From contig JABDLS010000049.1 of NCBI GenBank assembly GCA_013002885.1, positions 1-60,395 on the forward strand: DNA of 60,395 bases, given 5' to 3'. The first letter of the stretch is position 1. Each line of letters begins with the position of its first letter. Of the stretch, positions 46,946-50,257 are shown one piece after another. The notes under the pieces were generated by a model that did no database searches, had not been told where the DNA came from, and saw only the letters and a program-made list of their open reading frames with translations. The DNA comes from Gemmatimonadota bacterium (GTDB lineage: Bacteria; Gemmatimonadota; Gemmatimonadetes; Longimicrobiales; Gaopeijiaceae). The translations under genes were made by a program, and so were the position numbers.

Positions 46946-47482
46946 CTAGACCCGCCCGTGACACTTCTTGTACTTCTTCCCGGAGCCGCAGGGACACGGA
47001 TCATTCCGCCCCGGCTCGTCCTCCACCGTCACCGGCGTCTGCTTCCGTTCCGCCTCGCCGCGGTTGGTGGCCAACTGAGCCGGATCCGGCCCTGACGCCC
47101 CGGCCGGCACAGCGGCCCCCGAAGCCGCGCGAGCCGACATCCCCAACTCGTCGACCTGCTTCGCCGGACGACGTGCCCCAGGCTGGCCACGCTGACCAGC
47201 GGCTGCGGCCTGTTCGGCAAGGGTTCCACCAGGGGTGTCCGAGGGCCCGCTGAAGCTCAGGCGCTGAGGGGTCCGCGGTTGTGGCCTCGGCGCACCGAAC
47301 TGGGCCCGGAAGAAGTAGCTGGCCAGGGTCTTTCGAAGGTCGCTCATGAGGTCCACGAACATGTCGTAGGCCTCCTTCTTGTACTCCACGAGGGGATCCT
47401 TCTGGCCCCATCCTCGGAATCCGATGGACGCCTTCAGGTGGTCGAGGTCGTAGAGATGGTCCTTCCACTTCTCGTCGATGAC
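46946..47482 (-). pseudogene. secA: C-terminal part of SecA, cut off by an internal stop
   Basis: In the same reading frame as the SecA gene upstream, the 178 codons after the TAG encode the rest of a normal Sec[39 protein letters not shown], a flexible Pro/Gly-rich linker, and the zinc-binding SEC-C tail [15 protein letters not shown]. These residues complete the two-helix finger and add the linker and SecB/ribosome-binding zinc finger. This fragment alone would lack the ATPase and is not expected to work. A GTG at 47389 could start a 147-residue piece, but no convincing ribosome site precedes it. The terminal stop is also TAG. Confidence 0.85.
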
Positions 47483-47485
47483 CTA
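47483..47485 (-). other. In-frame TAG stop inside secA
   Basis: Reading the gene strand, the codons are ATG CTC TAG GTC ATC GAC GAG AAG TGG. Both sides stay in the same frame and match SecA. In relatives I recall this position as Arg, Gln or Asn (for example VMLQTLD in E. coli), so one C-to-T change of CAG would give TAG. Confidence 0.9.
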
Positions 47486-50257
47486 GAGCATGATGAAGCT
47501 CATGACCTGCTCGGAATGCTCTCCCAGCGTGTCGATCTTGCGGTGGAACGAATCCTTGAGCCCGTCGAGGACCCAATTCTCGACCTCGTGTCGCTCGACC
47601 TCGTGCTCGGCGTCATTCTCTTCGGGCAGTTCGGAGACGAGGATGAAGAAATCGAGGGTGAGGCGGCGGCGCAGCCCCGCCAGGTCCCAGTGCTCGGGGT
47701 TCGCCTCGGCCGGTGCGTATTCGTCGATGGCGTCCCTGGCGGCGTTCTCGATCATCTCCCAGATCTCACCCTTGAGATCCTCACCACCCTCCAGGGCGAA
47801 GAGCCGGAGGTCGTAGATGACCTCCCGCTGCTGGTTCATGACGTCGTCGTAGTCCAGAAGCCGCTTGCGGGCCTCGAAGTTGTTGGTCTCGACACGCTTC
47901 TGGGCCCGTTCAATGGACTTGGTGACGAGGCCGTGGGTGATGACTTCCCCCTCCTCGGCGCCCCACTTCTCCATGACGTTGGCGATCCGCTCCGACCCGA
48001 AAAGCCGCATGAGGTCGTCTTCGAGCGAGAGGTAGAACTGGGACGACCCCGGATCACCCTGACGGCCGGCCCGCCCACGCAACTGGCGATCGATTCGGCG
48101 TGAGTCGTGGCGCTCGGATCCCAGGATCTGGAGACCACCCTCTTCCAGGACGTCGTCTTCGCTCTCGAGACGCAGTTTGTCGGCCCTCACAGGATCGACG
48201 GGGAGGACCTCCTCCGGATCGATATCCCGCTCTCCGAGCCATGAAACGGTCCGTGCCTCCGTGACCCCTTTCCCGAGTTTGATGTCGGTGCCGCGACCGG
48301 CCATGTTCGTGGCCACCGTGACGGCCCCGGGCTGGCCCGCATCCCTGACGATGTCCGACTCGGACTTGTGGTGCTTCGCGTTCAGAACCTGATGTTGGAT
48401 TCCGCGGCGTTTCAGCATGCGCGACAACGTCTCCGACACGTCGACGTTGGTCGTGCCGACGAGTACGGGAAGCTCGAGCTTGTTGAGGCGGTCGATCTCG
48501 TCCATGATCGCGATGTACTTCTCGCGCTTCGTCTTGAAGATGAGATCGTCGCGATCGTCGCGGGCGATGGGCCGGTTCGTCGGGATGACCAGGACGTCGA
48601 GTCCGTAGATCTGGTGAAACTCGCCCTCCTCGGTCTCGGCGGTACCCGTCATCCCGGCGAGCTTGTCGTACATCCGGAAGTAGTTCTGGATGGTGATGGT
48701 GGCGAGGGTCTGGGTCTCCCCTCGGATCTCCACCCCTTCCTTCGCCTCCACCGCCTGGTGGAGACCATCGCTCCACCGGCGCCCGGCCATCTGACGGCCA
48801 GTGAACTCGTCGACGATGACGACCTGACCGTCCTCGCCGATGATGTACCGCTCGTCCTTCTGGAAGAGCGTATACGCCTTCAACAACTGGTGCAGGACGT
48901 GGATCTTCTGGCTCTTCGCCGCATACTCGGCCTCGAGCTCCTGCATCCGCTCCCGCTTCTCGTCCACCGACATGGCTTCGGAGTGCTCGATATCGCCCAT
49001 CTCCGCCGAGAGGTCAGGCACGAGGAAGGCATCCGGATCGTTCGGCGAGAGCTCGTCGAGGCCGCGGTCCGAGAGGTGCACGTTGTGCCCCTTCTCGTCC
49101 ATGGCGAAAAGGAGCATTTCGTCGACTTCGTGGAGGCGCTTCTCCCGCATGTAGTCGGCTTCGACCTTGTTGATCAGCGTCTGGAGTGATGGATCGTCGG
49201 CGGTGAGCTTCATGAGCTTCCTGTGCTTCGGCGTGCCGCGCTTGACCGCCAGAAGCTTCTCGCCGGCTTCGAACTCTTCCCCGGCCTCCAGGTGCGCTTC
49301 CGCCGCACTCACCAGCTCGTTGGTGATCCGGAGCTGCTTCTTGTAGAGGGAAGCCACAAGGGGATTGAACTGCTTGAAGGGGGTCGACGTGTCGCGGCCA
49401 ACCGGCCCGGAGATGATCAGCGGCGTCCGGGCCTCGTCGATGAGAATCGAGTCGATCTCGTCGATGATGGCGTAGGAATGCTCCCTCTGGACCCTCTGCT
49501 GGAGGGAGTGGACCATATTGTCGCGGAGGTAGTCGAACCCGAACTCGTTGTTCGTCCCGTACGTGATGTCCGCCCGGTACGCAGCTTGGCGCTCCGGTGA
49601 GCCGGGATCGTGGCGGTCGATGACGTCCACGGTGAGGCCGAGGAAGTTGTAGACCGCCCCCATCCACTCTGCGTCACGTTGGGCCAGATAGGAGTTCACC
49701 GTGACGAGGTGAGCGCCCCGACCGGCCAACGCGTTTAGGTACATGGGCATGGTCGCCACGAGTGTCTTACCCTCACCCGTAGCCATCTCCGCCACCTTGC
49801 CGCGATGGAGCGTGATGGCGCCGACGAGCTGGACGTCATAGGGAATCATGTCCCACGTCAGCTGCTGGCCGGTGACCGTGATCTCCTGACCCACCAAGCG
49901 GCGGCAAGCATCCTTCACTACGGCGAACGCCTCGGGCAGCAGGTCCTCCAGTGATTCCTCGATCTCTTCGAGCAGGTCGGCCTCGAACTCACCGATCTCC
50001 AGGGACAGACGCTCCCGCTCCGAAGCGTCTTCAGAATGCCGTTTCTCCTCCTTGAGGGCCTCGATCTTTCCTTCGAGTTCGGCCGTGCGCTCCTTGATGT
50101 AGGCCCGGAACTCGTCGGTCTTGGCCTTCAGTTCGTCATCCGAAAGAGACGAGAGACCTTCGTAGGCCGAGTTGATCTCGTCGACGAGGGGTTGGAGTGC
50201 CTTCGCCTCCCGTCGATGACGATCGCCGAGGAGCTTCTTTATGGCTGCTTTGAACAT
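47483..50257 (-). CDS. secA: Protein translocase ATPase SecA, N-terminal 924 residues up to an internal stop
   Basis: SecA is the motor that pushes unfolded proteins through SecYEG. The start at 50257 ([17 protein letters not shown]) matches the family. Walker A is ATGEGKT (159-165), Walker B-like [13 protein letters not shown] (264-276), followed by the second ATPase domain ([32 protein letters not shown]). A charged helical insertion lies at residues ~55-105. The frame ends in SFIML-TAG inside the conserved two-helix finger. Read through, the full protein would be about 1103 residues, normal for this kind of SecA. If not, the product lacks part of the finger that contacts the substrate and channel, and should not function. 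Confidence 0.93.

What the first reader, a model, noticed from the sequence alone, without database searches (positions are those of the whole stretch)
47483..47485. An in-frame amber codon splits the essential secA gene
The sequence shows TAG between two parts of a single secA frame. All 31 codons just after it match the conserved SecA finger region and the frame then continues to a normal SEC-C zinc tail. The finger is needed to push substrate, so truncation should be lethal. TAG is the ordinary stop of tatA, lptD, tatC, tolQ, pal, the methyltransferase and secA itself, so global recoding of TAG is excluded by the window. Remaining options are a sequencing or assembly error, a real mutation in a dying lineage, a second intact secA copy, a suppressor tRNA or programmed read-through giving two SecA forms.
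Basis: partly seen in the sequence, partly recalled or inferred. Interest (0 to 1): 0.75.

Follow-up and report, generated by a model that had tools for sequence, protein, structure and literature searches.

The report
Lone stop codon in secA
In one draft bacterial genome the essential secA gene is cut by a stop codon that none of the related copies examined carries at that place; it is most likely a one-base sequencing error, or else a passing mutation, and so probably ordinary.

Summary
secA lies on the minus strand (ATG at 50255-50257, final TAG at 46946-46948); codon 925 is TAG at 47483-47485, in frame, inside one SecA wing/scaffold domain just before the two-helix finger. It is a singleton: of 121 family genomes searched, 107 have a secA match spanning this codon and only the window's own shows a stop. 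All 9 same-genus genes read have serine there, as do the 120 listed best proteins. The frame after the stop shows no decay: 0 of 60 finger residues differ from the nearest relative. No second secA was found; RF1 is present; no PylS and no CUA tRNA were found, though the tRNA set of this 89%-complete assembly looks incomplete. In 834 kb of this genome no other in-frame TAG read as an interruption of a gene (by eye). Best reading: a one-base consensus error of a (presumably metagenome) assembly; second, a real nonsense mutation caught before selection removed it. Read-through is not excluded but lacks positive support. In passing: a probable selenocysteine TGA in an OsmC-like gene.

The parts
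47486..50257 (-). secA, first 924 codons: nucleotide-binding domains, preprotein cross-linking domain and first 138 positions of the wing/scaffold domain
   Evidence: PF07517 391 bits, PF21090 269 bits, PF01043 90 bits, PF07516 positions 1-138; TIGR00963 898.7 bits, cut-off 800
47483..47485 (-). in-frame TAG, codon 925, in a column where relatives read have a sense codon (serine in all 9 same-genus genes read)
46949..47482 (-). secA, 178 codons after the TAG: two-helix finger, rest of the scaffold domain, variable linker, SEC-C zinc tail
   Evidence: PF07516 positions 140-200; PF02810; first ~60 residues match the same stretch of solved SecA chains such as 3din
46946..46948 (-). normal final stop (TAG) of secA

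Best explanation
The in-frame TAG in this secA is most likely a single-base error in the consensus of a draft assembly, and the living cells would then make an ordinary full-length SecA, probably with serine at this place. Shown: one TAG in an otherwise intact and conserved secA frame, seen in this assembly and in no relative read. Shown: no duplicate secA in the assembly, RF1 present, no other TAG in the sampled part of the genome that reads as an interruption of a gene. Inferred: that the base is wrong rather than truly mutated, and that the assembly is a metagenome-assembled genome; raw reads are not available here.
For: Of 121 family genomes, 113 have a match and 107 a match spanning codon 925; a stop inside that match is listed for the window's own genome only, 0 of 106 others (counted by me from its rows). 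All 29 relative loci and all 64 GTDB loci that fitted my motif, of 80 fetched, have a sense codon; the 120 listed best proteins, from 7,999 scored, have serine. TAG is one substitution from the serine codon most relatives use. The stretch after TAG evolves like its homologues: 0 of 60 finger residues and 0 of 19 SEC-C residues differ from P0001, and distances to the outgroup proteins P0004, P0005, P0006 and P0013 are close for the window and for P0001 in each region; dN of the 60 finger codons is 0.007 with dS 0.90 and 0.72 against the same-genus genes L004 and L005. [quoted passage not shown] Broken secA proteins occur in public assemblies: of the 128 SecA proteins listed have a SEC-C-like end; of the other 9, P0121 is the window's own, P0056, P0100 and P0124 look cut short (two of them are labelled partial or end at SEC-C), and by eye P0120, P0122, P0123 and P0126 have out-of-frame tails and P0125 a foreign, adapter-like tail. 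One unexplained nonsense codon in 834,359 bases needs only about 3e-5 errors per base (my estimate, assuming that about 4% of random coding substitutions make a stop).
Against: No reads, coverage or second assembly of the same species were available; the nearest intact proteins are 95.0% identical, so probably another species. The rest of the sample is clean: apart from secA and an OsmC-like TGA, no interruption among 578 gene-like ends (by eye), so the assembly is not generally error-ridden. The window's own protein cluster P0121 lists 2 member sequences on 1 contig; I could not see the second member, and an independent record with the same end would speak against an error.
Confidence: 0.66

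Rival explanations
1. A real nonsense mutation: some or most cells of the sampled population carry the TAG, very recently, as a polymorphism on its way out.
For: The frame after the TAG shows no decay, as a very young mutation would. [quoted passage not shown] abstract, part 1 of the results and passages read).
Against: SecA is called essential (PMC5963308, abstract start in the listing), no second secA was found, and the lost part includes the finger; such a cell should not grow, so it should not dominate a consensus (inference).
Confidence: 0.2
2. The TAG is decoded: a suppressor tRNA or leaky termination lets a fraction of ribosomes through, giving full-length SecA plus a 924-residue form.
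For: Purifying selection on both sides of the stop. The assembly is rated 89.5% complete and the Rfam search gave only 22 ordinary tRNAs, with none for Ala, Asp, Glu, Gln, Ile, Cys or Trp by anticodon, so a CUA tRNA could be missing from it. The genome has the genes to read UGA as selenocysteine.
Against: No CUA anticodon among the 22 or in the 40 sampled stretches scanned with ARAGORN. The only match of a CUA-tRNA pattern is the arginine tRNA already known; the same pattern form fits 21 of the 22 tRNAs with their own anticodon. No PylS above cut-off; RF1 present. Of 170 TAG-ended gene-like ends in 834,359 bases, 15 were flagged for coding signal after the stop and only secA reads as an interrupted gene (by eye). 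The TAG is in no relative read.
Confidence: 0.06
3. A second, intact secA exists in the part of the genome missing from the assembly, and this copy is a dying duplicate.
For: About 10% of the genome is rated missing. One same-genus genome, G003, has a second partial secA match on the contig of its full secA.
Against: Only one secA in the assembly; the one other, weak hit is RecG. A dying copy should evolve faster after the stop, which is not seen.
Confidence: 0.05
4. SecA is made as two separate polypeptides, the second started again after the TAG.
For: In-frame start codons exist at 957 (GTG) and 966 (ATG), and the protein database holds a 147-residue piece of the window that starts at 957 (P0130).
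Against: The GTG lies 32 codons after the TAG, so the first part of the finger would be in neither piece. Stand-alone fragments in the database start at many different places, mostly 807, 835, 919 and 923, with no peak just after 925 (4 of 120 at 926).
Confidence: 0.02

Closest known systems
SecA, preprotein translocase ATPase (TIGR00963; PF07517, PF01043, PF21090, PF07516, PF02810)
   Same: All these domains present, in order, in one frame; proteins 95.0% identical over 1103 residues without a gap exist
   Different: One in-frame TAG at codon 925, not seen at that place in any relative read
Short-lived in-frame stop codons in bacterial genes (PMC7918605; abstract, part 1 of the results and passages read)
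   Same: One-base nonsense change in a gene otherwise under purifying selection; that paper names sequencing errors among the sources of such stops
   Different: Its large-scale part required the stop to be shared by two or more species; this one is in one assembly only, in a gene called essential
Two SecA isoforms of E. coli (PMC13178939; passages read)
   Same: A shorter SecA form occurs in cells
   Different: The E. coli short form lacks the C-terminal ~70 residues; the product here would lack 179 residues (925-1103) with the finger

Membership tests
SecA | SecA motor domains and SecA equivalog score | tested here: met
   TIGR00963 898.7 bits over cut-off 800 for the first piece alone; PF07517, PF21090, PF01043
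SecA | wing/scaffold domain with two-helix finger in one uninterrupted reading frame | tested here: not met
   PF07516 is split by TAG between profile positions 138 and 140
SecA | SEC-C zinc tail | tested here: met
   PF02810 44 bits in the second piece; that the tail is optional in the family is recalled
Conserved TAG read-through | stop conserved in related genes | tested here: not met
   stop in 1 of 107 family genomes with a match spanning the codon, the window's own; 0 of the 120 listed proteins
Amber suppression by tRNA | tRNA with CUA anticodon in the genome | tested here: inconclusive
   none among 22 tRNAs, none in the sampled stretches, none by pattern, but the tRNA set looks incomplete
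Pyrrolysine decoding of TAG | pyrrolysyl-tRNA synthetase | tested here: not met
   3 weak matches, best 23.1 bits against cut-off 178.15
Global TAG reassignment | TAG not used as ordinary stop, RF1 lost | tested here: not met
   170 of 578 gene-like ends are TAG; RF1 488.1 bits, cut-off 423.25
Old pseudogene | relaxed selection after the stop | tested here: not met
Sequencing or assembly error | reads disagree with the consensus | not testable with these tools
   no reads or coverage held

The most novel reading that the evidence does not exclude
This lineage reads TAG in secA as a sense codon by a suppressor tRNA that is missing from the draft genome, so that full-length SecA is made only at a fraction set by read-through and a finger-less 924-residue SecA is made beside it: a translocation motor dosed by stop-codon decoding.
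Probability: 0.04. Interest if true: 0.8.

Novelty: not a real feature. Interest (0 to 1): 0.12.

Why it matters
If the TAG were real and read through, a stop codon would be dosing an essential secretion motor, which would be very surprising. As it stands the case mainly shows how one base in a draft consensus can make an essential gene look broken, and how comparing the codon across a taxonomic family, plus a check of the codons after the stop, narrows the question without reads.

Tried and rejected
Global TAG recoding: rejected, TAG is an ordinary stop in window and sample, RF1 present.

Pyrrolysine: rejected, no PylS above cut-off.

Second secA: the only other hit of the SecA DEAD profile in the genome, 19.6 bits on contig C55, is RecG.

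Conserved split SecA: I searched the 178-residue second piece for stand-alone relatives (7,998 candidates scored, 120 listed). The listed fragments start at many places (most often 807, 835, 919, 923; 4 at 926), many of them on contigs of about 1 kb. P0123 (84% identical, 920 residues) ends within about five residues of the window's stop, but by an out-of-frame tail as I read it.

General decay or error load: 33 candidate in-frame continuations among 578 gene-like ends in 834,359 bases. I judged them by eye as starts of the next gene or as antisense shadow, except secA and an OsmC-like gene with TGA; I printed the longer pieces of five of them and ran Pfam on the pieces of secA and OsmC only. 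Gene-like ends were picked by a codon score and include some wrong frames.

First pattern for a CUA tRNA had too long a gap: only 6 of 22 known tRNAs fitted it with their own anticodon. That negative was discarded and the search repeated with a shorter gap, which fits 21 of 22.

ARAGORN on the second 20 stretches gave a tRNA-Arg already listed, the tRNA-Sec, a tmRNA and a 96-base tRNA-Gly(acc) that the Rfam tRNA search did not list, which I take for a false positive.

dN/dS script: only 4 of 10 loci gave a usable gene by my pattern (L004, L005, L007, L013); the other 6 were dropped for that reason. Over the whole stretch after the TAG, dN of the window against the three full-length genes is 0.143-0.198, against 0.116-0.210 among those three; before the TAG 0.089-0.100 against 0.057-0.089. 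Motif script: 17 loci (16 GTDB loci and L187) did not fit the motif and were left out of the counts. The genome sets overlap.

Fold after the OsmC TGA: z-score -0.65, 52 of 200 shuffles at least as stable; no evidence of a SECIS element.

Paper searches: (0 papers). I make no claim that something is not in print.

Full report
What is in the sequence. secA lies on the minus strand of the window. From ATG at 50255-50257 the frame has 924 sense codons, then TAG at 47483-47485, then 178 sense codons and a final TAG at 46946-46948. The first piece matches the SecA motor, cross-linking and P-loop domains and positions 1-138 of the 200-position wing/scaffold domain; the second piece matches positions 140-200 of the same domain and the SEC-C motif. 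By alignment to solved SecA chains, residue 926 is position 757 of 3din (T. maritima, named so) and residue 927 is position 763 of 2fsf (E. coli, recalled). The finger positions named in PMC4907695 (E. coli 793 and 795; T. maritima 780; passages) therefore lie about 24-34 residues after the TAG.

Where it comes from. The window is contig C75 of a 4.0 Mb, 156-contig genome, rated 89.5% complete with 2.8% contamination. The nearest named SecA genes fetched are Gemmatimonadota MAGs such as UBA2960 (85% identity, which may leave out the window's own genome). That the window's assembly is itself a MAG is inferred, and its habitat is not known to me.

Is the stop shared? Not in anything read. Among 121 genomes of the family, 113 have a secA match and 107 of them, the window's own included, have a match that spans residue 925 (counted by me from the rows; 6 have only matches elsewhere in the protein, 8 none). 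A stop inside that match is listed for the window's genome only, so 0 of 106 others. Two other listed rows of that call show a stop, but they are short, weak matches to the SEC-C tail region (G104:C290, G074:C44). In 29 relative loci read by motif, every one has a sense codon, and all 9 of the same genus have serine. In GTDB species genomes 64 of 80 fetched loci fitted the motif and none has a stop. The 120 listed best proteins all have serine there (only the 7,999 candidates sharing most words were scored). The three nearest proteins are 95.0% identical over 1103 residues with no gap. The only closer protein listed is the window's own 924-residue piece (P0121); its cluster has two members on one contig and I could not see the second.

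Is the part after the stop decaying? No sign of it. Against P0001, the window differs at 32 of 771, 9 of 153, 0 of 60, 13 of 99 and 0 of 19 residues in five successive regions, the last three being after the stop. Distances of the window and of P0001 to the four outgroup proteins P0004, P0005, P0006 and P0013 are close in each region, for example 19 and 17 of 95 linker residues to P0004. dN in the 60 finger codons is 0.007, 0.007, 0.021 and 0.076 against four relatives, with dS 0.72-1.25. The stop is therefore an error, or very young, or read through.

Could it be decoded? RF1 is present. TAG is an ordinary stop: it ends 170 of 578 gene-like ends in the sample and the window genes matching LptD, TatC, OmpA and MotA/TolQ/ExbB. 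No pyrrolysyl-tRNA synthetase above cut-off. No CUA tRNA among 22 found, nor by a pattern that in the same form fits 21 of those 22. ARAGORN on the first 20 sampled stretches found 9 tRNAs, all already in the Rfam list; on the second 20 it found one listed tRNA, the tRNA-Sec, a tmRNA and one doubtful tRNA-Gly(acc). So the Rfam search is not blind; but tRNAs for seven amino acids were not found at all, so the assembly or the search lacks part of the set and this negative is weak. In the sample, 15 of 170 TAG-ended gene-like ends were flagged for coding signal after the stop; by eye only secA is an interrupted gene.

Could another SecA do the work? No second secA is in the assembly; the only other, weak hit is RecG. 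The missing tenth of the genome could hold one.

How common are broken secA records? Of the 128 SecA proteins listed end in a SEC-C-like tail. Of the 9 that do not, one is the window's own, three look merely cut short, and five have out-of-frame or foreign tails by eye. Frameshifts are not the same kind of fault as a substitution, so this is only a loose yardstick.

Verdict. One unexplained nonsense codon in 834 kb, in one draft assembly, in a gene where relatives and selection on both sides say that full-length protein is made, is best explained by one wrong base in the consensus. A real, short-lived mutation is second; in-frame stops that last only briefly are reported in bacteria (PMC7918605; abstract, part 1 of the results and passages). 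Read-through stays possible only because the reads and the full tRNA set could not be examined.

A side result. The same scan flagged a gene whose frame is cut by TGA (L153:19500-19502, minus strand). The piece after the TGA matches OsmC (39.7 bits, cut-off 27.5, profile 23-100); the piece before it, searched alone, matched no family. I read the TGA as standing at the family's active-site cysteine (by eye; motif recalled). The genome has a tRNA-Sec (69.4 bits, gathering 47; ARAGORN agrees) and a SelB over its cut-off, and OsmC-like selenoproteins with a UXXT motif are listed in PMC1088965 (passages). Against it: the residues after the TGA are L-A-G-T, so threonine comes one place later than in UXXT, and no stable fold follows. 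So this genome likely recodes UGA in the ordinary way, which does not bear on TAG.

Noticed in passing
L153:19239-19694 minus strand (G000 contig C70, 79239-79694): An OsmC-like gene interrupted by in-frame TGA at L153:19500-19502, probably selenocysteine; the genome has tRNA-Sec (contig C27) and SelB (contig C150). The fold after the TGA is no more stable than shuffles and the UXXT motif is off by one.
   Followed up: partly
G000 whole assembly: Only 22 ordinary tRNAs came from the Rfam tRNA search, none for Ala, Asp, Glu, Gln, Ile, Cys or Trp by anticodon, although the assembly is rated 89.5% complete; two tRNA-Ser(CGA) genes lie on contigs C100 and C144.
   Followed up: partly
G003:C59:1-1149 (same-genus genome): A second partial secA-like match (75-77% identical, residues 592-974) lies on the same contig as the full secA of that genome, possibly a tandem secA or a misjoined contig end.
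   Followed up: no
P0123 (database protein, 920 aa): A SecA from another assembly, 84% identical, ends by an apparent frameshift within about five residues of the window's TAG.
   Followed up: no
L200:714-809 (G000 contig C34, 20714-20809): ARAGORN calls a 96-base tRNA-Gly with anticodon ACC that the Rfam tRNA search did not list; likely a false positive.
   Followed up: no
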